Below, piece after piece: positions 8,295 through 21,521 of a stretch of 64,000 nucleotides of DNA; the first letter of the stretch is position 1; each line of letters opens with the position of its first letter. The translations under genes and the position numbers were made by a program. The notes beneath the pieces were generated by a model. That model was not told where the DNA came from. It was given only the letters and a program-made list of their open reading frames with translations, and ran no database searches. Origin of the DNA: Jeotgalibaca dankookensis (GTDB lineage Bacteria; Bacillota; Bacilli; Lactobacillales; Aerococcaceae); assembly GCF_002005405.1 (NCBI RefSeq), contig NZ_CP019728.1, positions 62,001 to 126,000 on the forward strand, read 5' to 3'.

Positions 8295-9745
8295 GTAAAT
8301 ACAACGAAACACTGAAGTCCTTACACGAAGGGTTAGCCAATAAGGAATTCTCTTCTGTTGAATTGACAAAGGAAGCTTTCAAACGTATTGATCAAACCGA
8401 CTCTAAAGTTGGGGCTTTTTTAGCGCTAAACGAAGCAGAAGCAATCAAACAAGCAGAAGCAGCAGATGCGCGGGGCTACCAAGATAGCAATGTGTTAAAC
8501 GGAATCCCTCTAGGAATTAAAGATAATATTATCACGGACGGGTTAACAACAACGGCAGCAAGTCGGATGTTAGAAGATTTCGTACCGATTTATGATGCAA
8601 CCGTTGTTTCAAAACTAAAAGAAGCCGGTGCAGTGAATGTTGGAAAATTAAACATGGATGAATTTGCCATGGGCGGAACAACTGAGACTTCTTATTTCAA
8701 AGAAACAAAAAACCCTTGGGATTTAAATAAAGTACCGGGTGGCTCATCAGGTGGCTCAGCAGCAGCCGTTGCATCGGGACAAATTTTAGCTTCCCTTGGT
8801 ACCGATACAGGTGGCTCGATTCGCCAACCGGCTGCTTTTAATGGCATCGTTGGGATGAAACCTACATACGGGAGAGTTTCTCGTTACGGACTGATTGCCT
8901 TTGCATCAAGTCTCGATCAAATCGGACCTTTTACACGGACTGTCACAGATAATGCTTTGATGCTAGAAGCAATCAGTGGACACGACAAGAGAGACTCCAC
9001 TAGTGCAAAATTAGAAGTACCACAATTTAGTGCCAACCTAACCGGTCAAATAGCTGGAATGAAAGTGGCGCTTCCTAAGGAATATTTCCAAGCGGGGGTA
9101 AGTCAAGAAATTCAAACAGCTGTGCGCAAAGCTGCTCAGCAATTTGAAGAAATGGGTGCCATTGTTGAAGAGGTAAACTTACCAACGCTATCCTATGGTA
9201 TTCCTGCTTATTATATTATTGCGTCGTCGGAAGCATCATCAAACCTACAACGTTTTGATGGTATTCGTTATGGGTACCGTGCTGAAGGTGTAAATAGTTT
9301 AGATGAACTATATATTCGTACCCGTTCAGAAGGCTTTGGTATGGAAGTAAAACGTCGTATCATGCTAGGAACCTTTTCTTTAAGTTCTGGTTTTTATGAT
9401 GCTTATTTCAAAAAAGCCAGCCAAGTGCGGACATTGATTAAACGCGATTTTGAACGAATTTTTAATGATTATGATTTCATACTGGGACCAACTACAACAA
9501 CGACCGCTTATAACTTAGGAACTAAGGTTGAAGATCCGATTCAAATGTACGTGTCTGATCTATTGACTGTAACAATTAACTTAGCAGGTGTACCAGCTAT
9601 CACAGTTCCAGGTGGTTTTTCATCAGAAGGTCTCCCAATCGGTATTCAATTGATTGGAAATTATTTTGAAGAAGCAAAACTATATCAAGCAGCATTTGCC
9701 TTTGAACAAGCAAATGACTACCATACCAAACACCCAAACTTGTAG
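8291..9745 (+). CDS. gatA: Aspartyl/glutamyl-tRNA amidotransferase subunit A
   Basis: 484 residues, normal for GatA. The amidase-signature catalytic triad is visible: Lys in GIPLGIKDNI (about residue 79), the cis-Ser in PGGSSGGSAAAV, and the nucleophile Ser in GTDTGGSIRQPAA. GatA hydrolyses glutamine and passes ammonia to GatB for transamidation of misacylated tRNA in the cytoplasm. It is coupled to gatC by a 4-base overlap and is followed 12 bases later by gatB, with GGAGG before the gatB start. Confidence 0.98.
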   Translation: MSKYNETLKSLHEGLANKEFSSVELTKEAFKRIDQTDSKVGAFLALNEAEAIKQAEAADARGYQDSNVLNGIPLGIKDNIITDGLTTTAASRMLEDFVPIYDATVVSKLKEAGAVNVGKLNMDEFAMGGTTETSYFKETKNPWDLNKVPGGSSGGSAAAVASGQILASLGTDTGGSIRQPAAFNGIVGMKPTYGRVSRYGLIAFASSLDQIGPFTRTVTDNALMLEAISGHDKRDSTSAKLEVPQFSANLTGQIAGMKVALPKEYFQAGVSQEIQTAVRKAAQQFEEMGAIVEEVNLPTLSYGIPAYYIIASSEASSNLQRFDGIRYGYRAEGVNSLDELYIRTRSEGFGMEVKRRIMLGTFSLSSGFYDAYFKKASQVRTLIKRDFERIFNDYDFILGPTTTTTAYNLGTKVEDPIQMYVSDLLTVTINLAGVPAITVPGGFSSEGLPIGIQLIGNYFEEAKLYQAAFAFEQANDYHTKHPNL

Positions 9746-9757
9746 GAGGCGAAAGAG

Positions 9758-11188
9758 ATGAATTACGAAACAGTTATCGGATTAGAAGTCCACGTAGAAT
9801 TAAAAACTGAATCAAAAGTGTTCTCCCCATCTCCAGCACATTTTGGGGCAGAGCCGAATACGAATACAAATGTGATTGACTGGGGCTACCCAGGCGTTTT
9901 ACCTGTCATTAATGAAGGGGCAGTTGAATTTGCAATGAAAGCAGCACTCGCTTTAAATTGCCAAATCAATCGCGAAACATATTTTGACCGTAAAAATTAT
10001 TTTTATCCAGATAATCCAAAAGCTTACCAAATATCACAACTAGATAAACCGATTGGGTATGATGGATGGATTGAAATTGAAGTAGAAGGTAAAAAGAAAA
10101 AAATTCGGATTGAACGTGTCCATTTAGAAGAAGATGCGGGTAAAAATACCCATGGATCCGACGGCTATTCCTATGTCGATTTAAACCGTCAAGGAACACC
10201 TTTAATAGAAATTGTTTCTGAAGCAGATATGCGTTCACCAGAAGAAGCATATGCATATCTAGAAGCAATCCGCGAAATTGTTATGTATACAGGTGTATCA
10301 GATGTAAAGATGGAAGAAGGCTCTATGCGTTGTGATGCCAATATTTCTATCCGTCCATACGGACAAGAAGAATTTGGTACTAAAGCAGAGATAAAGAACT
10401 TGAACTCATTTAACTATGTGCGACGTGGACTCCTTCACGAAGAAAAACGTCAAGCACGTGTTTTAAATTCAGGTGGCGAAATTCAACAAGAAACCCGCCG
10501 TATTGATGAAACAACGGGCGAAACAATCTTGATGCGTGTAAAAGAAGGAGAAAGTGACTACCGCTATTTCCCTGAACCAGACTTACCAGAATTTGAAATT
10601 TCGCAAGAATGGATTGACCGGGTTCAAGCTAGTCTACCCGCTCTTCCGAAAGAACGCCGTTTAAAATATATTAAAGACTATGACTTACCAGAATACGATG
10701 CAATGGTATTAACCTTATCTAAAGAGATGTCAGATTTCTTTGAAGATACAATTGCAGCAGGAGGCGATCCGAAACAGGCTTCTAACTGGTTAATGGGTGA
10801 AGTTTCGGCTTATTTAAATAGTGAAAAACTAGAATTAGCTGATACAAAATTAACACCAGAAAACTTAGCAGGCATGATTATGCTAATTGCTGACGGTACC
10901 ATTAGTTCTAAAATGGCGAAAAAAGTTTTCCGTCTCCTTGCCACTAAAGGTGGGGTAGCCAGAGAAGTAGTTGAAAAAGAAGGATTAATCCAACTTTCTG
11001 ATCCAAGTCAATTGCTACCAATTATCAACAGTATTTTAGATGCAAATCAACAATCCATAGATGATTTCAAAGCAGGGAAAGACCGTGCTAAAGGATTCTT
11101 AGTCGGACAAATTATGAAACAAACCAAGGGTCAAGCTAACCCAGGTGTTGTTAATAAATTATTATCAGAAGAACTAGCTAAAAGATAA
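9758..11188 (+). CDS. gatB: Aspartyl/glutamyl-tRNA amidotransferase subunit B
   Basis: 476 residues, standard length. The N-terminus [21 protein letters not shown] is the GatB signature, the middle has [13 protein letters not shown] and [12 protein letters not shown], and the C-terminus has the YqeY-like tRNA-binding tail ending [21 protein letters not shown]. GatB activates the misacylated aminoacyl-tRNA by phosphorylation and completes transamidation with GatA-delivered ammonia. It ends the gatCAB operon. The terminator that should follow has been split by an insertion sequence. Confidence 0.98.
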
Positions 11189-11191
11189 TTC

Positions 11192-11203
11192 AAAAAGAAG
11201 CAC
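11192..11203 (+). terminator. Left arm of the gatB terminator, separated by an IS
   Basis: AAAAAGAAGCAC begins 3 bases after the gatB stop. Its exact complement GTGCTTCTTTTT lies at 12760-12771 on the far side of the insertion sequence. The two arms were once one hairpin. Confidence 0.75.
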
Positions 11204-11219
11204 TGACTAGGTTAAACTG

Positions 11220-11270
11220 GACCCTATAAAGTAGACTCTTTAAAAAAGAGACCCTTTATAGGGTCTTTTT
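11220..11270 (+). terminator. Terminator hairpin inside the IS left end
   Basis: GACCCTATAAAG (11220-11231) pairs exactly with CTTTATAGGGTC (11254-11265), followed by TTTTT. It overlaps the left inverted repeat and would stop read-through from outside into the transposase gene, a known self-limiting device in insertion sequences. Confidence 0.65.
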
Positions 11271-11386
11271 ATGTCTTGTACGAGAATTAGTCTCCCTTTC
11301 CTGATAAACTGGAGGAAAGGAACGGGAACCGCGACCGCTCCCCCAAGAGAGCCTTACAAAAAATACATTTTTAAGAGGAGGAACCC

Positions 11387-12712
11387 ATGTCAAAACGAAC
11401 ATTCACGGACGAGCAGGTTACAGACCTATCCCACAACCCCTATGTTCAGAACGTCTCCCCCAAAGCCATCACCTACTCGGACGAGTTCAAGGTCCACTTC
11501 CTTGCGGAGTGGAAAAAGGGAAAGACTGCCCGACAGATTTTCATGGAGGCGAGTCTCCCAGTGGAGGTCCTAGGCGAGCGGCGAATCCACACCGCTGCCA
11601 ACCGCTGGAAGAAGGCCTATCAGGAGAGCGGGATCACGGGCGTACGAGATCAGCGCAAGGGCGCATCGGGGCGCCCCCGCCTCACGGAGCTTTCGACCGA
11701 AGAGCAGCTCCGCCGGGCCAAGCAGGAGAATGTCCTCCTCAGACAGGAGAATGAGCTGTTAAAAAAAATCGACTTCGCAGAAAGGAGGGGAAATGAGTTA
11801 AGCAAGCAGGAGCGGTTCGCCCTCATCCAACAGGTGACGAGTCGCCCCGGCTCGCTCTCCGTCAGGAGAGCTTGTCTGATTCTGGAAGTATCCAATTCCG
11901 GCTACTACGCGCATTTCTCCCCCGAGAACCAATGCAAAAGGCAGGAGAAGGAAGAGGAGGACCAGAGGTGGCGCGACCGTGTTCTGGAAGCAATGGCCTA
12001 TAAACGGGTGGCGAAAGGTTCCCGTGCCATTGTCATGTACTTCCTCAACACGAAGAAAACTGTAGTGAACCGCAAGAAAGTCCAGCGGATCATGCGAAAG
12101 TATGGACTCCAGTGTCCTATCCGCCGTGCGAACCCGTACCGAAAAATCGCAAAAGCCACACAAGAACATCGCACCGTTCCGAACCGGCTCCAGCGGCAGT
12201 TTGATCAGTCAGCGCCGAAGAAGGTGCTCCTGACTGATATTACCTATCTCCGGGGAAAAGACGGCTTCCTAGGCTACCTCTCTACCATCTTGGATGGCGC
12301 CACAAAGGAGGTTTTAGCCTACGCCGTCGCCGACCGAATCACCTTGGACATAGCTCTCGATACGGTGAAAGATCTAGTGGCAAAACATGGAGAGGACCTC
12401 CCTGCGCAAGCCCTCCTCCATTCCGACCAAGGGTCGCACTACACTAGCCCCATCTTCCAGAAATTGGTGCAGAAGAATGGCCTAACCCAATCTATGTCCC
12501 GCCGTGGGAACTGCTGGGACAACGCCCCACAGGAGAGCTACTTCGGCCACCTAAAGGACGAAATTCCTTACGAGGAGTGTCATTCACTGAAGGAGTTACA
12601 GTCTGTCATTATCAACTATATGGACTACTACAACCACGAGCGCGGCCAATGGAAACTGAAAAAGCTGACCCCGGTTTCCTACCGGGATCAGCTCTTGAAA
12701 CAAGTAGCCTAG
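11387..12712 (+). CDS. IS3-family transposase, single open frame
   Basis: 441 residues from ATG 11387, preceded by AAGAGGAGG. The N-terminal part (about 25-130) is an HTH_IS3-like DNA-binding region ending in a leucine-rich helix (LRRAKQENVLLRQENELLKK). The C-terminal part is an rve/DDE integrase core with Asp in LLTDITYL, Asp in LLHSDQGSHYTS and Glu in PQESYFGHLKDE. Most IS3 members use two frames joined by a programmed -1 shift; here the A8 run at 11761-11768 is read straight through, so orfA and orfB are fused. Codon use is GC-rich compared with neighbours. It appears intact and possibly active. Confidence 0.92.
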   Translation: MSKRTFTDEQVTDLSHNPYVQNVSPKAITYSDEFKVHFLAEWKKGKTARQIFMEASLPVEVLGERRIHTAANRWKKAYQESGITGVRDQRKGASGRPRLTELSTEEQLRRAKQENVLLRQENELLKKIDFAERRGNELSKQERFALIQQVTSRPGSLSVRRACLILEVSNSGYYAHFSPENQCKRQEKEEEDQRWRDRVLEAMAYKRVAKGSRAIVMYFLNTKKTVVNRKKVQRIMRKYGLQCPIRRANPYRKIAKATQEHRTVPNRLQRQFDQSAPKKVLLTDITYLRGKDGFLGYLSTILDGATKEVLAYAVADRITLDIALDTVKDLVAKHGEDLPAQALLHSDQGSHYTSPIFQKLVQKNGLTQSMSRRGNCWDNAPQESYFGHLKDEIPYEECHSLKELQSVIINYMDYYNHERGQWKLKKLTPVSYRDQLLKQVA

Positions 12713-12775
12713 ATTCTCTCTTTTTTAAACTGTCCTTGACTTGGGATCCAGATTAGGTCGTGCTTCTTTTTTATA

Positions 12776-12803
12776 TTACACGCATTTCTATCTGTGTTAT
12801 AAT
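12776..12803 (+). promoter_or_regulatory. Promoter of first dagK
   Basis: TTACAC (12776-12781), 16-bp spacer, TATAAT (12798-12803) with the extended -10 TGT before it. It lies just right of the IS, so dagK expression does not depend on gatB read-through. Confidence 0.65.
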
Positions 12804-12849
12804 AGCTTCCGAAACCAAATGGAAGTTTTGAAAGTAGAGGCACGAATTT

Positions 12850-13830
12850 ATGAGAGCAAGGGTTATTTATAATCCGTCATCCGGGCGGGAACAACTAAAG
12901 AAGAATATGCTAGACATTTTAGCGGTTTTAGAAGAAGCCGGCTATGAAGCCAGTGCTTTCGCAACAAAAGCTGAACCCAATTCCGCAGCAAACGAAGCTA
13001 GAAGAGCAGCGAAAAATGGCTTTGATCTGATTGTTGCAGCTGGTGGAGACGGAACTGTGAACGATGTTGTTAATGGAATTGCCAATTTAAAAAAACGTCC
13101 GACGATAGGGATTATTCCGGCCGGTACAACCAATGACTATGCCAGAGCGTTAAAAATCCCACGAACAAATTTAGTGGAAGCAGCCAAAGTGGTTGCTGAA
13201 GGACAGGTTGTCCCTATGGATATCGGTCAGTCTAATGAACAATACTTTGTTAACATTGCAGCAGGTGGTTATTTAACCGATTTGACCTATCAAGTGCCGC
13301 CTAAATTAAAGACGGCTTTTGGCTATTTAGCTTATTTGGCTAAAGGGGCAGAAAAATTGCCAGGTATCAGACCGATGCACATGAATATTAAATATGATGG
13401 CGGAGAATTTAATGGCTTAGCATCGATGTTTTTTATTGTAATGACGAATTCAACCGGCGGCTTTGAAATGCTGGATCCTAATATTAAATTAGGAGATGGT
13501 AAATTCTCACTATTTGTTCTCAAAACAGCGAATGTATTTGAAATCTTGCAAATTATCGGCGCTGTTTTAAATGGCGGCAAGCACTTGAATCATCCACAGG
13601 TTCTTTATGCTAAAACAAACTTTGTGAAAGTGAGTTCGCGGGATCAACAACCCTTGATGCTAAATTTGGACGGTGAATATGGTGGCGATGCGCCAGCTAC
13701 TTTCGTGAACCATCAACAACATATTAACTTTATAGGTAATCACACGGAAGTCTATGAAGAGATAGATGCTGAAGCAAAACGAGAAGCTTTCATGCAGAGT
13801 ATCGAACAATTAGGACAAGACTCTCCATAG
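12850..13830 (+). CDS. dagK: Diacylglycerol/lipid kinase, YegS/DagK family (copy 1)
   Basis: 326 residues with the DAGK catalytic domain. It begins MRARVIYNPSSGREQL, has the GGDGTVNDV nucleotide-binding motif (about residues 65-73), GIIPAGTTNDYARAL, and LNLDGEYGG near the C-terminus. In Gram-positives DgkB/DagK phosphorylates diacylglycerol released by lipoteichoic acid synthesis, returning it to phospholipid synthesis at the membrane. A second copy at 33156-34139 is about 60 percent identical by eye. In related genomes a single dagK usually lies between gatB and rlmD; this copy keeps the gatB side. A clear terminator follows. Confidence 0.93.
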   Translation: MRARVIYNPSSGREQLKKNMLDILAVLEEAGYEASAFATKAEPNSAANEARRAAKNGFDLIVAAGGDGTVNDVVNGIANLKKRPTIGIIPAGTTNDYARALKIPRTNLVEAAKVVAEGQVVPMDIGQSNEQYFVNIAAGGYLTDLTYQVPPKLKTAFGYLAYLAKGAEKLPGIRPMHMNIKYDGGEFNGLASMFFIVMTNSTGGFEMLDPNIKLGDGKFSLFVLKTANVFEILQIIGAVLNGGKHLNHPQVLYAKTNFVKVSSRDQQPLMLNLDGEYGGDAPATFVNHQQHINFIGNHTEVYEEIDAEAKREAFMQSIEQLGQDSP

Positions 13831-13832
13831 TA

Positions 13833-13868
13833 AACAGGACTGAAAGCTTTGGCTTTCAGTCCTGTTTT
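13833..13868 (+). terminator. Terminator after dagK copy 1
   Basis: AACAGGACTGAAAGC (13833-13847) pairs with GCTTTCAGTCCTGTTTT (13852-13868), a near-perfect stem with a 4-base loop and a short T run. Confidence 0.85.
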
Positions 13869-13889
13869 GCTTAACGAAACAGATAGCCC

Positions 13890-13918
13890 TTACAAAAAAG
13901 CAATATTTTTGGTATAAT
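13890..13918 (+). promoter_or_regulatory. Promoter of the CarD-like gene
   Basis: TTACAA (13890-13895), 17-bp spacer, TATAAT (13913-13918). The downstream leader is about 70 nt and ends in AAGGGGG ahead of a TTG start. Confidence 0.7.
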
Positions 13919-13995
13919 ATATATACAAGTGCATTTTCAAAAACAAGTACAGGTTTCTTTTGTACGCGGCACCGATTTTATAAGGGGGAATTCCA

Positions 13996-14508
13996 TTGTA
14001 TCAAGTTGAAGATTACATTATTTATGGTAATGAGGGTGTCTGTCAAATAGAAGCAATTGAGATGTTGGATTTATTAAAATCTGGCAAAGAAAAAGCTTAC
14101 TATGTCCTTCAGCCCGTCTATCGCAATGGTACGGTTTATACGCCTGTTGATACTAAGGTCTTTATGCGTCATGTCATTACAGAAGAAGCTGCAAACGATT
14201 TGATTGATCAAATGCCATCAATCCGCGCAGAAGCAAGTGGTCCAACGAATGCATCTATCTTAAAAAATAAGTATACCGCAGCAATCCAAGAGAATAATGC
14301 GACTGACCTCATTCAATTAATCAAGAGCATTTACAAGAAAGCTGCCATCGCTCAAGAAAAGAACAAGAAAATGGGGCAAACTGATAAGTTTTTCTTACGA
14401 AAATCGGAGGATTTACTATATGGTGAGTTGGCAGTTGCTTTAGATATGCCTCGTAATCGCGTTAGAGATCATGTTGAACAGCGTTTGGCAGATTTAGCAA
14501 GAAAATAA
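13996..14508 (+). CDS. CarD/CdnL-family transcription regulator
   Basis: 170 residues with a TTG start, AAGGGGG 7 bases upstream. The N-terminal 60 residues (YQVEDYIIYGNEGVCQIEAIE... YYVLQPVYRNGTVYTPVD) match the CarD/TRCF RNA-polymerase-interacting domain, which binds the beta subunit. The helical C-terminal half (KSIYKKAAIAQEKNKKMGQTDKFFLRKSEDLLYGELA) matches the CdnL DNA-contacting domain. CarD-type proteins stabilise promoter open complexes, commonly for ribosomal and stress genes. It is a single-gene transcription unit with its own promoter and terminator. Confidence 0.88.
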   Translation: MYQVEDYIIYGNEGVCQIEAIEMLDLLKSGKEKAYYVLQPVYRNGTVYTPVDTKVFMRHVITEEAANDLIDQMPSIRAEASGPTNASILKNKYTAAIQENNATDLIQLIKSIYKKAAIAQEKNKKMGQTDKFFLRKSEDLLYGELAVALDMPRNRVRDHVEQRLADLARK

Positions 14509-14514
14509 AAGATT

Positions 14515-14549
14515 CAAAAAACCTGGATATCACATTCCAGGTTTTTTTT
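14515..14549 (+). terminator. Terminator after the CarD-like gene
   Basis: AAAAAACCTGGA pairs with TCCAGG followed by eight T residues (14536-14549); a canonical rho-independent terminator. Confidence 0.9.
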
Positions 14550-14568
14550 ATCGAAAGGTCTTTAAAAT

Positions 14569-14578
14569 TTGCTATAAT
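14569..14578 (+). promoter_or_regulatory. Extended -10 promoter of the zinc-ribbon/barnase/barstar operon
   Basis: TTGCTATAAT, i.e. TATAAT at 14573-14578 with TGC directly before it; no good -35 hexamer is visible, as expected for an extended -10 promoter. The start codon is 33 bases downstream. Confidence 0.55.
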
Positions 14579-14610
14579 AGATAAGAAAATAGAAGGTAGG
14601 AGATAAAATT

Positions 14611-15036
14611 ATGAGTAAGCTCGTCAGTTGGGTACAAAATATTATGCGACAAGCCAATGGTTTTGATGATTTATCACGATTCTTATTGAAAACAGGTGCC
14701 ATAACTGGCATTATCGGGATGTTATTTAGGGTCAATCTCTTTCTTTGGCTGGGATTTATTTTAATTCTATTCATGTATATCCGAACTTTTTCAAAAGACA
14801 GGCAAAAATACTATCAACAAAACCGTTTCTATCATAAACAACGAAATAAAATAATTAATTTTTTTAATGGACAAAAAAATCTTGTTTCAAAAAAGCAAGA
14901 CCAATTTAAACAGCATAAAACGTACCGCTTTTATAAGTGTCCAAACTGTGGACAAAAGGTACGCGTTCCGAAAGGAAAGGGTAAGATCGCAATTACGTGC
15001 CCCGCATGTTCAGAAAAGTTTGTGAAGAAAAGTTGA
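14611..15036 (+). CDS. Membrane protein with C-terminal zinc ribbon
   Basis: 141 residues. Residues about 30-55 form a hydrophobic stretch (ITGIIGMLFRVNLFLWLGFILILFMYI split below 20 here as two adjacent segments), followed by a long basic region rich in Lys, Gln and Arg, and a C-terminal zinc ribbon CPNCGQKVRVPKGKG...CPACSEKF with four Cys. The family is widespread in Lactobacillales but without known function. Its stop (TGA) overlaps the probable TTG start of the barnase gene by 4 bases, so it is the first gene of a three-gene unit with barnase and barstar. Any role in RNase secretion or control is only inferred from that linkage. Confidence 0.75.
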   Translation: MSKLVSWVQNIMRQANGFDDLSRFLLKTGAITGIIGMLFRVNLFLWLGFILILFMYIRTFSKDRQKYYQQNRFYHKQRNKIINFFNGQKNLVSKKQDQFKQHKTYRFYKCPNCGQKVRVPKGKGKIAITCPACSEKFVKKS

Positions 15037-15497
15037 AAAAATTTAAGAGACTTTTATTCTTACTTTTCATTTTATTTTCCGTATCTGCTTGCACGTATAG
15101 TGATATTCTAGAAGGTTCAACAAACAATCAACCAGATTTAAATACAGTCCAATATGGAAATGCGTATTCAGATAAAGAAGAAGTAGCCGATTACTTGCAT
15201 CAATTTGAAGAATTGCCGCCTAATTTTCTAACGAAAAGTGAAGCACGGGCATTAGGGTGGGATAATGCAAAAGGGAACTTGTGGGAAGTAGCGGAAGGGA
15301 TGTCTATTGGTGGTGATTATTTTGGGAATAGAGAAGGCTTGCTGCCAGAAGAAAGAGACCGTGATTATTTCGAAGCAGATATCAACTATCAAGGTGGTTA
15401 TCGCAATAGCGAACGGATGATTTTTTCGAACGATGGCTTGATTTTCTATACAGAAGATCACTATCAGTCTTTTGAAACTTTGTATGGGGAGGAATAG
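15033..15497 (+). CDS. Barnase-type guanyl-specific ribonuclease, predicted lipoprotein
   Basis: 154 residues from TTG 15033. The start is chosen because it gives a standard signal peptide (KKFKRLLFLLFILFSVSAC) and a 4-base TTGA overlap with the gene before; longer starts at 14997 and 15006 add a non-signal extension. Cys at about residue 20 fits a lipobox (SVSAC). The mature part parallels barnase: VADYLHQFEELPPNFLTKSE, ALGWDNAKGNL, IGGDYFGNREG, FEADINYQGGYRNSER (general base Glu and catalytic Arg) and EDHYQSF (catalytic His). All active-site residues are present. Barnase cleaves RNA 3' of G. A lipid anchor would hold it on the outer membrane face, unlike freely secreted barnase. The barstar gene follows 2 bases later. 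Confidence 0.9.
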   Translation: MKKFKRLLFLLFILFSVSACTYSDILEGSTNNQPDLNTVQYGNAYSDKEEVADYLHQFEELPPNFLTKSEARALGWDNAKGNLWEVAEGMSIGGDYFGNREGLLPEERDRDYFEADINYQGGYRNSERMIFSNDGLIFYTEDHYQSFETLYGEE

Positions 15498-15499
15498 TC

Positions 15500-15787
15500 A
15501 TGGAAAAAATACTATTAGATGGCGCTGACTTTACTAGCCGTGAGATTCTCCATACCATTCTACAAGAAAAATTACACCTTCCAGACTACTATGGTCGTAA
15601 TTTAGATGCTCTTTGGGACCTATTAACGACCGACTTTTCCAAAAAAATGATTGTAGTTCGTAATCCACAATCCATTAAAGACAATTTGGGTGGCTACGGA
15701 GAAACACTATTAGGTGTTTTTAGGGAGTTGGCTATTAAAAACCGAAATATTACCTTTGTTTATTCTTATCCATTTCCCTTGGAATAA
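15500..15787 (+). CDS. Barstar-family ribonuclease inhibitor
   Basis: 95 residues with GGGGAGG just upstream. It matches barstar along its length: LPDYYGRNLDALWDLLT corresponds to the barnase-binding helix with the conserved Asp residues (the NLDALWD stretch), and the end reads RELAIKNRNITFVYSY. Barstar binds the barnase active site in the cytoplasm and protects the producer before export. Adjacent placement after the ribonuclease gene, as an immunity partner, is the expected order. The protein has no signal peptide, in keeping with a cytoplasmic role. Confidence 0.92.
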   Translation: MEKILLDGADFTSREILHTILQEKLHLPDYYGRNLDALWDLLTTDFSKKMIVVRNPQSIKDNLGGYGETLLGVFRELAIKNRNITFVYSYPFPLE

Positions 15788-15800
15788 TTTTAACAAAGCA

Positions 15801-15829
15801 TGGACAAAGAGGGGTATTCTTGCTATATT
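15801..15829 (+). promoter_or_regulatory. Promoter of argS
   Basis: TGGACA (15801-15806), 17-bp spacer, TATATT (15824-15829) with extended TGC. It gives a leader of about 120 nt before argS that lacks T-box hallmarks. Confidence 0.6.
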
Positions 15830-15880
15830 AATGTAGATATGGACTTAAATTTAACGAACGATTAAATCCGAAGGGGTGCC

Positions 15881-15967
15881 ATGAAACGTTTTGAAGCAGA
15901 CAACAGTAGTTGCCAAGCGCAGATGGCTCTTATAAACAAGAAAAGGGAGACAAATAATGGATTATAA
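15881..15967 (+). CDS. Possible leader peptide upstream of argS
   Basis: A 28-codon frame ([18 protein letters not shown] then [10 protein letters not shown]) starts at ATG 15881 with AAGGGG 4 bases upstream and stops 11 bases inside argS. It contains two Arg codons, one of them the rare AGG. It could couple translation into argS or act as a leader peptide, but there is no clear attenuator hairpin. It may equally be chance. Confidence 0.3.
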
Positions 15968-17648
15968 AAAATTAGTTGCTGATGAATTACACAAACACGT
16001 TGCTGAGTATATGAGTCAAGAAGAAGTATTAAACTTACTGGAAAAACCTAGACACGATGAACATGGAGATGTTGCATTCCCAGCGTTTTCACTTGCTAAA
16101 GTCTTACGTAAAGCACCGCCTGTAATCGCTAAAGAGTTAGAAGGAAAGATTGATCATCCAGCAATTGAAAAGGTAGAGACAGTCGGACCTTACTTAAACT
16201 TTTTCTTAAATAAAGAACTTATTTCTGCAGAAATACTAAAAGAAGTGATGACACAAGAAGCTGATTTTGGTAGTTCTGATTTGGGACAAGGTCGAATGGT
16301 TCCGATTGATATGTCTTCACCTAATATTGCCAAACCTATTTCTATGGGACACCTGCGTTCAACCGTTATTGGGAATGCTTTAGCGAACATTGTTGAAAAA
16401 GTTGGCTATAAACCATTCAAAATCAATCACTTAGGTGACTGGGGAACGCAATTTGGTAAGTTAATTGTAGCTTACAAAAAATGGGGGAACGAGGAAGCAG
16501 TTTTAGCTGACCCTATTGCAGAATTACTTAAACTTTATGTGAAGTTCCATGAAGTTGCGGCAGAAGAAACTGAATTAGAAGACGAAGCCCGTGCTTGGTT
16601 TAGAAAACTAGAAGATGGCGATGAAGAAGCAAAAGGTTTATGGACTTGGTTCCGTTCTGAATCCTTAAAAGAATTTATGAAAATCTATGATATGTTAGAT
16701 ATTACCTTTGATTCCTTCCATGGTGAAGCTTTTTATAATGACAAAATGGATGAAGTTATTTCATTGTTAGAAGAAAAGAATCTTTTAAAACAAGATCGTG
16801 GCGCTTCTGTAGTAGAACTAGAAAAATATAATTTAAATCCGGCTTTAATTAAAAAGTCAGATGGTGCAACACTTTATATTACCCGTGACTTGGCAGCGGC
16901 TATTTACCGTAAACGTACGTATGATTTTGCTTTATCACTGTACGCAGTTGGAAACGAACAATCTCACCACTTCAAACAACTAAAAGGTGTTTTAAAAGAA
17001 ATGGGCTATGATTGGGCCGATGACATGTACCACATTCCATTTGGTTTAATTACCCAAGGTGGTAAAAAATTATCAACACGTCAAGGTAAAGTTGTCCTAT
17101 TAGAAGAGGTTCTAAACGAAGCACGCTCATTGGCGCTGGAACAAATTAACGAGAAAAACCCAACTTTAGAAGATAAAGAGGGCGTTGCCGACCAAGTAGG
17201 TATTGGCGCTGTTGTTTTCCACGATTTGAAGAATGAACGCCTTAACAACTTTGACTTTGTACTAGAAGAAGTGGTGCAATTTGAAGGTGAAACAGGTCCT
17301 TACGTTCAGTACACAAATGCACGTGCATTAAGTATCTTGCGTAAAGCAGATCAACCAATTGAACTAGATGCGCCACTAACAGTGGGCGATGACTACGCAT
17401 GGGACGTCTTGAAATTGATTAATAGTTTCCCAGATGTTGTCATGAATGCTTTCAACCGATTCGAACCGTCCGTCATTGCGAAATATGCTTTACAATTATC
17501 GCAAGCTTTCAACCGTTATTATGGAACCACTAAAATACTAGTGGATAATGAAGACCGTAATGCTCGTTTGGTTTTAGTGAAAGCAACCAGTCTGATTCTG
17601 CAAGAGAGTCTTCGCTTACTAGGCGTTAAATCACCAGAAAGAATGTAA
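15957..17648 (+). CDS. argS: Arginyl-tRNA synthetase
   Basis: 563 residues, standard for bacterial ArgRS. The N-terminal Add-1 domain is followed by the class I HIGH-type motif ([20 protein letters not shown]), then DWGTQFGKL, the KMSKS-equivalent [13 protein letters not shown], and the DALR anticodon-binding C-terminus ending [13 protein letters not shown]. It charges tRNA(Arg) with arginine. AAAGGGAG precedes the ATG. Its own promoter lies behind the barstar gene, and an inverted repeat follows the stop. Confidence 0.98.
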
Positions 17649-17662
17649 AAAAATAGATAAAC

Positions 17663-17697
17663 AGCTAGAGGTTGGAGATAAATCCAGCCTCTTAGCT
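17663..17697 (+). terminator. Hairpin after argS
   Basis: AGCTAGAGGTTGGA (17663-17676) pairs with TCCAGCCTCTTAGCT (17683-17697) around a 6-base loop. No T run follows, so termination may be partial and may allow expression of the next gene. Confidence 0.55.
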
Positions 17698-17723
17698 ATT
17701 GGTAAAATGAAGGGAGGTTCCGG

Positions 17724-18773
17724 ATGCGTAACCATAAAGTAAAGAAAAAAAGCAAATGGTTTTTGAGAAATACATTCTTGGTGCTAATCGTTTTGTTTGG
17801 TACTTCTTTGGTTCAAGACCAAAAAAACAGTGAATTAACCGATTCAACAGCAGTGATTGAAACAGTCTCATCTCCTAAAACAGTAGAAGCACTAACTTTA
17901 AAACCAAACGTGATAGAAGAAAATAAAGAGTTAGAAAAATTAATTCCAGATACCATCAAAAGTCCCAACGTTATCTTGTTTGACTATGAGACGCAAGAAA
18001 TTATAGCCGAAAAAGCGAGCCACGAAACGGTTTACCCGGCTTCTCTAACGAAACTAATGACGGTTCTAATTGCTTTAGATTATATACCTGACCTTAATAA
18101 AGAAATTGTTATGGAGGAAGAGTATTTTGAAGGCCTCTTTGAGCAATTGGCTTCGATCAGTGGTTTTATCGAGGGAGAAAAAGTTCAGATGCGCGATTTA
18201 CTTTATGGCGCCATGTTACCTTCTGGTGCGGATGCTTGCTTAGCTTTGGCACATTTAATCGCTGGTTCAGAAGAAGCCTTTGTTGATTTAATGAATCAAA
18301 AAGCAGAAGAGCTTGGGCTTCAACAAACCCATTATGCAAACTCAACTGGGCTCCACCACCGAACCAATGTTTCAAGTGTAGCTGATATTTCAAAAATCGT
18401 GATGGCAGGCTTAGAAAACCCTATATTTTACGAAGTTTTTACAACGCTACAATATCAAGTGCCTCCAACTAATATAAATGAAGAAGGCTTTGTTATGAAG
18501 AGTACTGTATTTAAGAACTTACTAAAATCGCCGGGTTTAATGGGAACAATTATCGGTGGTAAAACAGGATTTACCGAACAAGCGGGACTATGTATGGCTT
18601 CTTTGGCTGTAATTGATGGGCATCGGTATCTTTTAGTAACGGCTGGAGCAGATGCGATACCCGATTTCCCAGTTGGACAAGATCGTATTGTTGCACAACC
18701 TTACCATATGCAAGATGCCACAGCTATTTACCGCCGTTTAACAAAGGAGCAATCCAATGTATTTAACCATTGA
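17724..18773 (+). CDS. Serine-type D-Ala-D-Ala carboxypeptidase (peptidase S11, DacA-like)
   Basis: 349 residues. A basic N-terminus and hydrophobic segment (about 13-30) form a signal anchor. The PBP5 core has SLTK (Ser107-Lys110) in YPASLTKLMTVLIALD, the second motif position SGAD (about 167-170), where the classical family has SxN, and KTG (about 280-282) in IIGGKTGFTEQAG. It removes the terminal D-Ala from peptidoglycan stems outside the cell. The Ala in place of the SxN Asn is a feature to note; I recall similar SGAD variants in Firmicutes, but this was not checked. The small HTH gene overlaps its end by 17 bases. Confidence 0.88.
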   Translation: MRNHKVKKKSKWFLRNTFLVLIVLFGTSLVQDQKNSELTDSTAVIETVSSPKTVEALTLKPNVIEENKELEKLIPDTIKSPNVILFDYETQEIIAEKASHETVYPASLTKLMTVLIALDYIPDLNKEIVMEEEYFEGLFEQLASISGFIEGEKVQMRDLLYGAMLPSGADACLALAHLIAGSEEAFVDLMNQKAEELGLQQTHYANSTGLHHRTNVSSVADISKIVMAGLENPIFYEVFTTLQYQVPPTNINEEGFVMKSTVFKNLLKSPGLMGTIIGGKTGFTEQAGLCMASLAVIDGHRYLLVTAGADAIPDFPVGQDRIVAQPYHMQDATAIYRRLTKEQSNVFNH

Positions 18774-18987
18774 TCAAACTGCTGAATATTTGAATTTACC
18801 GGTACACGAGATACAGCGTCTAATTAGAGAAAATCAGATTCGGATTGTGACAGTTGATGATGAAATACTTATTTATCAAGAACAATTTAACTTGTTTCTT
18901 AAAGAAATGGAGAAAAAGAAACGGGAACGCGATGAATTTTTATCAACACCAATTCCAGAAGATCCTGATATAAAAGATGAAGACTAA
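18757..18987 (+). CDS. Small excisionase-type (MerR-like HTH_17) DNA-binding protein
   Basis: 76 residues. The start YLTIDQTAEYLNLPVHEIQRLIRENQIRI is a helix-turn-helix of the excisionase/HTH_17 class, with a conserved LT..TAEYL pattern. The tail is charged (KEMEKKKRERDEFL, then PIPEDPDIKDED). The start overlaps the carboxypeptidase gene by 17 bases and AAAGGAG lies upstream of ATG. No integrase is nearby, so an excision role is unlikely; it is probably a small regulator of unknown target. Confidence 0.7.
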   Translation: MYLTIDQTAEYLNLPVHEIQRLIRENQIRIVTVDDEILIYQEQFNLFLKEMEKKKRERDEFLSTPIPEDPDIKDED

Positions 18988-18995
18988 ATAAAAAA

Positions 18996-19589
18996 TTAGC
19001 GTGGCGTACCAAAAATTTGTACGAGATATAGGTTTTCACCATCATAATGAACGCCAATTCCTAATTCTTTATAATCCGGTTCAACCATATTTTCGTAATG
19101 GCCAGGACTTTCAACCCAGCCCTCAAATAAAAAATCTGCCATTTCAACTTCTGATAGGTGATAGGTTCCCATTGCCAGGTTTTCTCCTGCTAACTGGTAA
19201 TCGTAACGGTCATCTAACACAGTGTGAAATGGCTCTTCGTTTGGTCGCGTATGTGAAAAGCGCTCTTCTGTTTCGTAAGCGCGAATAGTTGCTACTTCAA
19301 TGAGAACCGTGTTATTCTCTAAGGATGAAAGGCCTTGTTGCACTCTTAATTCATTTGTACGTTCAAAAATCCGGTTTCGGATTTTTTCTTGGTCAATTTC
19401 TTCAGGCTTTGTTTGGTTTTGAGTAATTATAAAAGACTGACGAATGGGCTCTTCTGATGAGTTAGTCTCGACGAGAACCGTTTCAAGTTCAGATTCGATA
19501 CGCGAATAGATGGTTTCAAAGTTGACGGCGATTCCTATAATCGCTATAATGATTAATCCTGTGAATAGACGTTTTATCAATCGTAACAT
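18996..19589 (-). CDS. CAP-domain (SCP/YkwD-like) extracellular protein
   Basis: 197 residues on the minus strand. Residues about 7-23 form a signal anchor (LFTGLIIIAIIGIAVNF). After a variable linker, the CAP domain runs from about 75: FERTNELRVQQGLSSL, ERFSHTRPNEEPF (conserved His), AGENLAMG (GEN motif) and WVESPGHYENM with the second His, ending GVHYDGENLYLVQIFG. Bacterial CAP proteins of this type are secreted or membrane-linked with unclear biochemical function, often tied to the cell wall or sporulation in Bacillus. It converges with the small HTH gene; only 8 bases separate the stops. An extended -10 promoter (TATAAT on the minus strand) lies at 19616-19621. Confidence 0.85.
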   Translation of the reverse strand: MLRLIKRLFTGLIIIAIIGIAVNFETIYSRIESELETVLVETNSSEEPIRQSFIITQNQTKPEEIDQEKIRNRIFERTNELRVQQGLSSLENNTVLIEVATIRAYETEERFSHTRPNEEPFHTVLDDRYDYQLAGENLAMGTYHLSEVEMADFLFEGWVESPGHYENMVEPDYKELGIGVHYDGENLYLVQIFGTPR

Positions 19590-19693
19590 AGTAGGTAACC
19601 CCTCTCTGTTGGTCTATTATAACAAAAATAAATGTCAGAGCCTTATTTGTAGAATAGCATTTTTTAAGTTAATCGTGAAAGGAGATGATAGCC

Positions 19694-20176
19694 ATGCCAC
19701 GAATAAGTGACTGGCAAATCGTTAAACGTCCCAGTGTTCCTAGTTTATCAATCACATCCACTGTTGCCTTAAAAGATTTAAATAAGGAAATAAGAAATCA
19801 AAAGGAAAAATTAAGTCAGTATTTAAATGCGCAGCATATTTATCCTGCAGATCATTTTTATGTTCGCTATCACTCTTTTAGCAAAACGAGTGTCGATTTA
19901 GAAGCTGGTTTCCCACTGTTTCAAGCGGTTGAAGGGCAGGCTTTGATTGAGTCAAAAGAAAAAGAAGCGGGGTTATACTTAACCTGTCTCTTTCAAGGAC
20001 CCCACAAAAAGATTCCGCCCGTCTACCGCGAAATGGAAGACTGGCTAGTTGAAAACCATTACCAAACGAATGGACAATCAGAAGAAATTTATTTAAATGA
20101 AAAAGTTTTGGACGAGTTACTTGTAACACAGATACTCATACCAATCTCGGAGGTAGTAAATGGAAAAAGAAAATAA
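19694..20176 (+). CDS. GyrI-like/AraC effector-binding domain protein
   Basis: 160 residues from ATG 19694, which has AAAGGAG 9 bases upstream; ATG 19685 is too close to it. The fold pattern fits the GyrI-like small-molecule binding domain: a first repeat with VALKDLNKEIRNQKEKLSQYL and DHFYVRYHSF, then VDLEAGFPLFQAVEG and YLTCLFQGPHKKIPPVYREM, ending YLNEKVLDELLVTQILIPIS, which is the usual end of these domains. No DNA-binding part is attached. It overlaps the MATE transporter gene by 17 bases, which suggests that it senses or delivers a compound linked to export. Confidence 0.7.
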   Translation: MPRISDWQIVKRPSVPSLSITSTVALKDLNKEIRNQKEKLSQYLNAQHIYPADHFYVRYHSFSKTSVDLEAGFPLFQAVEGQALIESKEKEAGLYLTCLFQGPHKKIPPVYREMEDWLVENHYQTNGQSEEIYLNEKVLDELLVTQILIPISEVVNGKRK

Positions 20177-21521
20177 AATGGGTGTCATGCCTATTAATCG
20201 TTTGCTGATTAATATGTCTGTACCTATGATGATATCAATGTTGGTACAGTCATTGTATAACATTGTGGATAGTATCTTTGTAGCAAGAATCAGTGAGGAA
20301 GCTTTGACAAGTGTCAGTTTAGCTTTTCCGATTCAAAATTTAATGATTGCTCTATCAGTTGGTGTAGGGGTAGGGGTAAACGCATTAGTATCACGTCGGA
20401 TCGGTCAAAAGCGTTATGATGATGCTAACCTGACTGCTGAAAATGGTGTGTTTCTTAATATTTTGCACTCCTTTTTCTTTGTCATTATTGGAGCCTTCTT
20501 AGTGCCACTATTCTTTTCATCACAAACATCAAATGCTGATATTATTTACCATGGAACAAATTATTTAAGAATTATTACTTTTTTTAGTCTAGGAAGTTTT
20601 CTTCAAATAACCTTTGAACGCTTATTGCAATCAACTGGATTAACCTTTTACGCAATGATATCGCAAGTAGTCGGGGCTGTAACGAATATTATCTTAGACC
20701 CTATCTTTATTTTTGGTTGGTTCGGCCTTCCAGCAATGGGAACGATGGGTGCAGCATGGGCAACCGTTACGGGTCAGGTGTTAGCTGCTTCTTTAGGGAT
20801 TTATTTCAACTTCCGCCATAATAAAGAGTTAACCCTCTCTGTTAGAGCTTTCCGACCTAAGTTAAATATTATTAAAGAAATATATGCTATTGGTTTACCT
20901 TCTATTATTATGATGGCAATTGGTTCAGTTTTAAACTTAGCCATGAACAATATTCTGATTGCTTTTAGTACGACTGCAACAGCCGTGTATGGCGTTTACT
21001 TCAGATTGCAAGGATTTGTCTTTATGCCTGTTTTTGGGATGAATAATGGTTTAATCCCTATTATCGGCTACAATTATGGTGCTCGCTATCCAGATCGTAT
21101 TCGTGAAACAATCAAGCTATCGGTTCGTTATGCAACAGTCATTATGACGGTTGGTTTAATAGGATTCCAAATTTTCCCAAGCTTCCTATTGTCTCTCTTC
21201 AATCCCTCACCTGAAATGTATAAAATTGGGATTACCGCTTTGCGGATTTTGAGTTTGCATTTTGTACCGGCGGGAGCAAGTATCGTTTTGAGTTCAGTCT
21301 TCCAAGCATTTGGACTTGGAAAATACAGTTTAGCTATTTCGATGATTCGCCAAGTTGTGTTACTATTACCGATTGCTTACCTGATGTCTTTGACCGGTAA
21401 TATTAACAATATCTGGTGGGCGTTTCTTATTTCAGAAACCGTATCTTTACTACTCTGCCTTTACTTTATGAAAATAATCAACAAAAATCATATTGTTCCT
21501 TTATACAAATTAGCAATTTAA
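20160..21521 (+). CDS. MATE family efflux transporter
   Basis: 453 residues, about 12 hydrophobic segments, beginning with GVMPINRLLINMSVPMMISM and VQSLYNIVDSIFVARISEEA, the signature of the DinF/NorM-like MATE branch. MATE proteins export cationic drugs or metabolites using Na+ or H+ gradients across the cytoplasmic membrane. The internal pseudo-repeat is visible in the second half (MNNILIAFSTTATAVYGVYF and later). GGAGG lies 7 bases before ATG. It forms an operon with the effector-binding gene and ends at a strong terminator. Confidence 0.92.
   Translation: MEKENKMGVMPINRLLINMSVPMMISMLVQSLYNIVDSIFVARISEEALTSVSLAFPIQNLMIALSVGVGVGVNALVSRRIGQKRYDDANLTAENGVFLNILHSFFFVIIGAFLVPLFFSSQTSNADIIYHGTNYLRIITFFSLGSFLQITFERLLQSTGLTFYAMISQVVGAVTNIILDPIFIFGWFGLPAMGTMGAAWATVTGQVLAASLGIYFNFRHNKELTLSVRAFRPKLNIIKEIYAIGLPSIIMMAIGSVLNLAMNNILIAFSTTATAVYGVYFRLQGFVFMPVFGMNNGLIPIIGYNYGARYPDRIRETIKLSVRYATVIMTVGLIGFQIFPSFLLSLFNPSPEMYKIGITALRILSLHFVPAGASIVLSSVFQAFGLGKYSLAISMIRQVVLLLPIAYLMSLTGNINNIWWAFLISETVSLLLCLYFMKIINKNHIVPLYKLAI

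What the first reader, a model, noticed from the sequence alone, without database searches (positions are those of the whole stretch)
14611..15787. Lipid-anchored barnase with barstar, coupled to a membrane zinc-ribbon gene
Barnase is normally free in the medium. Here the TTG start at 15033 gives a full lipobox (SVSAC) and all three catalytic residues are present. The zinc-ribbon gene overlaps it by 4 bases and barstar follows 2 bases later. A surface-tethered RNase with cytoplasmic immunity could serve contact-dependent competition, RNA scavenging or phage defence. The upstream zinc-ribbon protein may be an undescribed partner.
Basis: partly seen in the sequence, partly recalled or inferred. 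Interest (0 to 1): 0.65.

Follow-up and report, generated by a model that had tools for sequence, protein, structure and literature searches.

The report
Surface-anchored barnase with its barstar inhibitor
The genes are real: an RNA-cutting enzyme of the barnase family, predicted to be tethered to the outside of the cell by a lipid, beside the gene of its inhibitor barstar; this tethered form turns out to be common in related bacteria, while the zinc-ribbon gene next to it looks like a neighbour of one genus rather than a general partner.

Summary
A zinc-ribbon membrane gene (14611-15036), a barnase with a lipoprotein signal peptide (TTG 15033; VSA|C, Cys codon 15090) and a barstar (15500-15787) lie in one direction, with a 4-base overlap and a 2-base gap. 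The nearest relative can start its barnase at the same overlap with GTG. The barnase active-site residues align at one constant offset. The triad sits at one chromosomal locus in 6 of 6 genomes of the genus. Two things change the reading. First, a lipobox is not unusual for barnase: 54 of 87 family members examined have one by a simple rule (44 of 884 control genes do), and 73 of 87 have barstar next door. Second, the zinc-ribbon gene is not a general partner: of 27 genomes of the order with both genes, adjacency was seen only in the three of this genus, and 0 of 66 zinc-ribbon locus records (49 places) outside it hold barnase or barstar. Searches for phage, defence or polymorphic-toxin links gave nothing. 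Most likely it is a cell-surface RNase with barstar guarding the cytoplasm; scavenging of outside RNA is inferred. My paper searches found no description of a lipid-anchored barnase.

The parts
14516..14547 (.). inverted repeat with T run (terminator-like) between the CarD-like gene and the zinc-ribbon gene
   Evidence: (reported on the - strand): stem of 12 pairs with 4 G-C pairs; 3 such sites found, 1.4 expected in shuffles, so weak evidence
14551..14578 (+). promoter-like site TCGAAA-16-TATAAT with TG before the second hexamer, upstream of the zinc-ribbon gene
   Evidence: 10 of 12 matches; 9 sites found in the region, 7.3 expected by chance, so only suggestive
14611..15036 (+). membrane zinc-ribbon protein, 141 aa; most hydrophobic about residues 34-61, then a basic stretch and CPNC...CPAC
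   Evidence: family widespread but not barnase-linked outside the genus
15033..15092 (+). lipoprotein signal peptide of the barnase up to and including the lipobox Cys (codon 15090-15092); TTG start overlaps the upstream stop by 4 bases
15033..15497 (+). barnase-family ribonuclease, 154 aa precursor
   Evidence: PF00545, PDB barnase E 3.4e-35, active-site residues conserved
15500..15787 (+). barstar, inhibitor, 95 aa, no signal peptide by eye
   Evidence: PF01337, PDB barstar E 2e-11; NLDALWD motif in 6 of 6 genus members

Best explanation
The zinc-ribbon gene, barnase and barstar are probably read as one unit. The barnase is exported by Sec, lipidated by Lgt on its Cys, cut by LspA, and stays on the outer face of the cell membrane through a spacer of about 28 residues, where it cuts RNA (after guanine, as known for barnase) close to the cell, so that the fragments can feed uptake of nucleosides and phosphate. 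Barstar has no signal peptide and stays inside, where it blocks any enzyme that folds before export. The zinc-ribbon membrane protein is an operon neighbour of this genus, not seen beside barnase elsewhere. Shown by sequence: gene identity, active site, lipobox, spacing, conservation. Inferred: lipidation, activity, surface location, RNA scavenging, co-transcription.
For: Family identity and active site. Lipobox in 6 of 6 genus members; lgt and lspA present in the window's genome. Stop-start overlaps TTGA and GTGA at the same place in two species. Barstar directly downstream in 73 of 87 barnase loci, and in 52 of 53 lipobox loci that could be judged. One locus in the genus (dgk upstream, argS downstream in 6 of 6; CarD-like gene in 5 of 6), with lineage-specific insertions. 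In the genus the barnase domain is nearly as conserved (mean 77.7% identity) as ArgS (81.4%), barstar 53.5%, which fits a constant substrate rather than diversifying warfare. No match in phage records, viral contigs (a pattern-based scan) or PADLOC. Precedent: balifase of Bacillus licheniformis is in one operon with its barstar orthologue and is induced by phosphate starvation (PMC5021464, passages read, part of the abstract among them).
Against: No experiment. No PhoP-box-like repeat upstream (consensus recalled; no hit between 11272 and 18426, window total at chance), so the phosphate-starvation parallel is not carried by regulation here. Patchy distribution in the order: 53 of 295 genomes with a match, 38 of them with a close one (E below 1e-24), less than expected of a housekeeping enzyme. 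The barstar residue E76 (recalled) is kept in the window but, by eye, not in G214 and G262. Start codon not proven; the lipobox rule is simple, not SignalP.
Confidence: 0.6

Rival explanations
1. Surface toxin with immunity: the tethered barnase is delivered to neighbouring cells on contact and barstar protects siblings.
For: Toxin-then-immunity gene order; simple barnase-barstar pairs were said to be a possible incipient toxin-immunity order (PMC3482391, passages read). Barstar evolves faster than the barnase domain.
Against: No delivery domain found: the precursor is signal peptide, spacer and RNase domain. Barnase domain strongly conserved in the genus and fixed at one locus. No entry route known for a lipid-anchored RNase (recalled).
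Confidence: 0.2
2. The zinc-ribbon membrane protein is a working partner of the barnase in this genus, for example helping export or tuning expression.
For: Adjacent in 6 of 6 genomes although the zinc-ribbon proteins share only 54.3% mean identity; stop-start overlap in two species.
Against: Of 27 genomes of the order with both genes (23 without four that have only distant barnase domains), adjacency is seen in 3, all of this genus. 0 of 66 zinc-ribbon locus records outside the genus hold barnase or barstar; of 117 barnase locus records (window not among them) only the 10 of the genus hold the zinc-ribbon. The gap varies up to 38 bases.
Confidence: 0.15
3. The precursor is exported but the RNase ends up free (cut by another peptidase or shed), as for Bacillus barnase.
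For: Some family members have cleavable-looking signal peptides; lipoprotein shedding is known in general (recalled).
Against: Lipobox in 6 of 6 genus members although the stretch after it varies; lgt and lspA present.
Confidence: 0.08
4. Phage defence by a surface or suicide RNase.
For: Only that it is an RNase with an inhibitor.
Against: No PADLOC match for the three proteins; the RNase is predicted outside the cell; the neighbours are housekeeping genes such as dgk and argS.
Confidence: 0.03

Closest known systems
Balifase and its inhibitor YrdF, Bacillus licheniformis (PMC5021464)
   Same: barnase-family RNase in one operon with a barstar orthologue (passages)
   Different: described as an extracellular RNase with signal peptide and propeptide; no lipobox or zinc-ribbon gene is mentioned in the passages read
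Barnase-barstar of Bacillus amyloliquefaciens
   Same: same RNase family and active-site residues, same inhibitor family
   Different: extracellular enzyme (PMC8294519 passages); its gene is said not to form an operon with the inhibitor (PMC5021464 passages); by my HMM no barstar within about 1.5 kb in the Bacillus-like loci L177, L179, L180, L182 ('Bacillus-like' is recalled from their sequence)
Polymorphic toxins with Tox-Barnase and Imm-Barstar (PMC3482391)
   Same: toxin-then-immunity order and same two families (passages)
   Different: no delivery domain found here
Lipobox barnases of other Bacillota (e.g. Holdemania L062-L063, Pelotomaculum L064, Velocimicrobium L065, unnamed f12 g101 genomes)
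   Same: lipobox, spacer, RNase domain, and barstar next door
   Different: no zinc-ribbon gene in the stretches held

Membership tests
Barnase / N1-T1 RNase family (PF00545) | profile match above curated cut-off | tested here: met
   64 bits against a cut-off of 24
Barnase / N1-T1 RNase family (PF00545) | catalytic Glu, Arg, His (barnase E73, R87, H102; numbering recalled) | tested here: met
   E114, R128, H143 with constant offset 41
Barnase / N1-T1 RNase family (PF00545) | guanine-preferring RNase activity | not testable with these tools
   needs the purified enzyme
Barstar (PF01337) | profile match above curated cut-off | tested here: met
   70.7 bits against 23.4
Barstar (PF01337) | barnase-binding residues (D35, D39, E76; recalled) | tested here: met
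   window keeps all three in the alignment; NLDALWD in 6 of 6 genus members, the Glu not in G214 and G262 by eye
Bacterial lipoprotein | basic n-region, hydrophobic stretch, lipobox Cys | tested here: met
   rule hits 44 of 884 control genes
Bacterial lipoprotein | host has Lgt and LspA | tested here: met
Bacterial lipoprotein | lipid on the N-terminal Cys | not testable with these tools
   needs labelling or mass spectrometry
Polymorphic toxin | N-terminal delivery domain with exchangeable C-terminal toxin | tested here: not met
   only PF00545 found in the 163-aa reading at E up to 1
Known anti-phage defence system | match to a defence model | tested here: not met
   0 matches at E up to 0.01 for three proteins
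Conserved three-gene system Zn-ribbon/barnase/barstar | co-occurrence in more than one genus | tested here: not met
   seen only within the genus among the genomes sampled

The most novel reading that the evidence does not exclude
Across Bacillota the usual form of barnase is a cell-tethered RNase encoded together with its barstar, and the free enzyme of Bacillus with an unlinked inhibitor is the exception; lipid anchor and signal anchor have replaced each other several times, so staying on the cell matters more than how.
Probability: 0.4. Interest if true: 0.55.

Novelty: new variant of a known kind. Interest (0 to 1): 0.36.

Why it matters
Barnase-barstar is a textbook protein pair whose natural role is poorly settled (recalled). 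If much of the family sits on the cell rather than in the medium, the role is local: feeding on or clearing RNA at the cell surface, or contact effects. It also bears on the published remark that the RNase-inhibitor operon of balifase is unique (PMC5021464): the same pairing is seen in 73 of 87 loci here.

Tried and rejected
Start codon: ATG 15006 and GTG 14997 considered; TTG 15033 preferred because G296 has a GTG at the same overlap. Rfam at gathering threshold, 9000-21000: no match. PhoP-box-like repeats (consensus recalled, up to 1 mismatch): none near the operon, window count at chance. Mobile origin: no phage match, no viral contig (one stretch matched a pattern, none confirmed), 4 records of the plasmid collection at under 60% identity, three of them 2.6-4.1 Mb long.

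The barnase tree is weakly resolved (9 of 82 inner branches starred; fewest changes of the lipobox label 10 on the best tree, 4 forced by starred branches; the six genus rows as one clade are not rejected, p-AU 0.66). The first tree held two bad rows (L031 wrong ORF, L080 broken frame) and was replaced.

Rows left out of the 87: the window's own copies L001 and L002; duplicates L097, L103, L104, L149, L161, L173; the four Aquabacterium loci L082-L085 (distant; one of them, L082, passed the lipobox rule, as did L080); L080 (frame broken); L181 (no ORF by my motif); G188 (not fetched); the 16 weaker places at the end (G272 and below), mostly in long open frames; the places that got no locus. My motif test for the active site passed 78 of 87 rows; the other 9 (L138, L174, L071, L074-L079) were not resolved further.

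Full report
Observation. The finding is accurate in its coordinates. The zinc-ribbon ORF runs 14611-15036, the barnase from TTG 15033 to 15497, the barstar from 15500 to 15787. The overlap is TTGA, the gap to barstar is 2 bases. Pfam finds PF00545 (E 1.9e-17) and PF01337 (E 1.1e-19) above their cut-offs; the zinc-ribbon protein has only sub-threshold matches in Pfam and in NCBIfam. Barnase and barstar are the best solved relatives. The genome holds a single PF00545 match.

Active site and signal. K68, E114, R124, R128 and H143, counted from the TTG, are invariant in the seven-sequence alignment and lie 41 positions beyond barnase K27, E73, R83, R87, H102 (barnase numbering recalled). The precursor begins LKKFKRLLFLLFILFSVSAC. 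The rule I used for a lipobox (small or hydrophobic residues before Cys, few polar residues just before it, a basic residue upstream) is a simple one, not SignalP; it marks 44 of 884 control genes of at least 100 aa in the fetched loci and 34 of 243 with an N-terminal hydrophobic segment. The control contains some spurious ORFs and repeated places. Lgt and LspA are encoded. In G296, the nearest relative, a GTG overlaps the zinc-ribbon stop by four bases (GTGA): two different non-ATG starts at one place argue for real stop-start coupling, though its longest ORF begins further upstream (overlap of 40).

Conservation of the triad. All 6 of 6 genomes of the genus hold both barnase and zinc-ribbon, side by side with barstar next. 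The gap from zinc-ribbon to barnase is -4 in the window and 6, 8, 14 and 38 bases in four others; barnase to barstar is -13 to 5. A diacylglycerol kinase gene lies upstream and argS downstream in 6 of 6; the CarD-like gene is found in 5 of 6; other genes are inserted in some species.

The zinc-ribbon gene alone. Its family is found in 93 of 295 genomes of the order and 29 of 299 of the phylum. Comparing the lists by hand, 27 genomes have both genes (23 without G158, G242, G252 and G272, which have only distant barnase domains); the three of this genus have them adjacent, and in the other 24 they lie on different contigs or more than 100 kb apart. Different contigs alone would not exclude closeness in draft genomes, but the flanks held do not show it: of 66 zinc-ribbon locus records outside the genus (27, 20, 19; 49 different places, flanks of 1.5 to about 7 kb where the contig allows) 0 hold a barnase or barstar by my HMMs, and of 117 barnase locus records the zinc-ribbon occurs only in the 10 records of the five other genus members. 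Elsewhere it sits beside varied genes (19 loci shown). So the association is a trait of the genus; partnership there is possible but not supported by wider evidence.

How common is a tethered barnase. I examined 87 barnase proteins: 6 of the genus, 36 other Lactobacillales, 26 other Bacilli and 19 from named contigs. A lipobox is present in 6, 17, 19 and 12 of these, 54 of 87 in all (duplicates and rows dropped are listed under Tried and rejected). The other Bacilli lean towards one unnamed genus (f12 g101, 16 of 26 rows), so the percentage is not a fair census; in the class-wide search 38 of 398 genomes had any PF00545 match. Among the 33 without a lipobox, several have a hydrophobic N-terminus in which my script found no signal-peptidase-like site (for example L009, L013, L028, L030, L098) and may be signal anchors, while the Bacillus-like ones (L177, L179, L180, L182) and some Clostridia (L074, L077, L078) show AxA-like sites. 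On a weakly resolved tree the label needs at fewest 10 changes on the best tree, 4 if only starred branches count.

Barstar linkage. By my HMM barstar is downstream on the same strand in 73 of 87 loci, mostly within 20 bases. It is not found beside the four Bacillus-like barnases, three g111 loci (L174, L176, L178), five Clostridia loci (L074-L078; the contig of L077 ends 460 bases on), L081, and L068, whose contig ends after 160 bases. Lipobox loci have it in 52 of 53 cases judged, other loci in 21 of 33; the contrast is strong by Fisher (p 2.2e-5) but vanishes when kinship is allowed for. A paper of 2016 calls the RNase-inhibitor operon of balifase unique (PMC5021464; passages, part of the abstract among them); these loci show the same pairing widely.

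Function. Within the genus the barnase domain is conserved almost like ArgS (77.7% against 81.4% mean pairwise identity), the whole barnase 67.1%, barstar and zinc-ribbon less (53.5% and 54.3%). Together with the fixed locus, the lack of a delivery domain, and no match in the phage collection, viral contigs or PADLOC, this favours a surface enzyme over a weapon or a defence gene. Scavenging of RNA is my inference, by analogy with phosphate-starvation induction of binase and balifase (PMC5021464); no PhoP-like box is seen here, and the patchy distribution (53 of 295, 38 close) speaks somewhat against a housekeeping role. Simple barnase-barstar pairs have been proposed as a possible incipient toxin-immunity arrangement (PMC3482391, passages), and this remains the main rival.

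Novelty. My searches of the paper library for a lipid-anchored or membrane-anchored barnase (listings) showed no title or abstract start that describes one; of the listed papers I read passages of two (PMC3482391 and PMC8294519), and of PMC5021464 from the listing. Most subscription papers are outside the library. I rate it as a variant of a known pair, modest in itself; the family-wide tethering is the more interesting point.

Noticed in passing
window 11387-12712: IS3-like transposase gene (by eye) between gatB and the diacylglycerol kinase gene; similar proteins cluster in L103 and L107 and L133.
   Followed up: no
window 13996-14508: CarD-like/TRCF RID protein directly upstream of the zinc-ribbon gene in 4 of 6 genus members, with two genes between in L132 and not found in L134.
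   Followed up: partly
L109, L114, L117, L118, L119: The zinc-ribbon membrane gene lies directly upstream of genes that look like pth and mfd (by eye); in L110 and L112 it follows mutS-mutL-like genes. No settled neighbourhood or function was seen.
   Followed up: partly
L074-L078: Clostridial barnases with a lysine-rich, Thr/Pro-rich linker, no lipobox and no adjacent barstar by my HMM: a different, perhaps free or wall-binding form.
   Followed up: no
G272, G226, G119, G252, G242, G083, G201: Weaker barnase-domain hits in longer open frames (232-1445 aa), perhaps C-terminal toxin domains of larger proteins.
   Followed up: no
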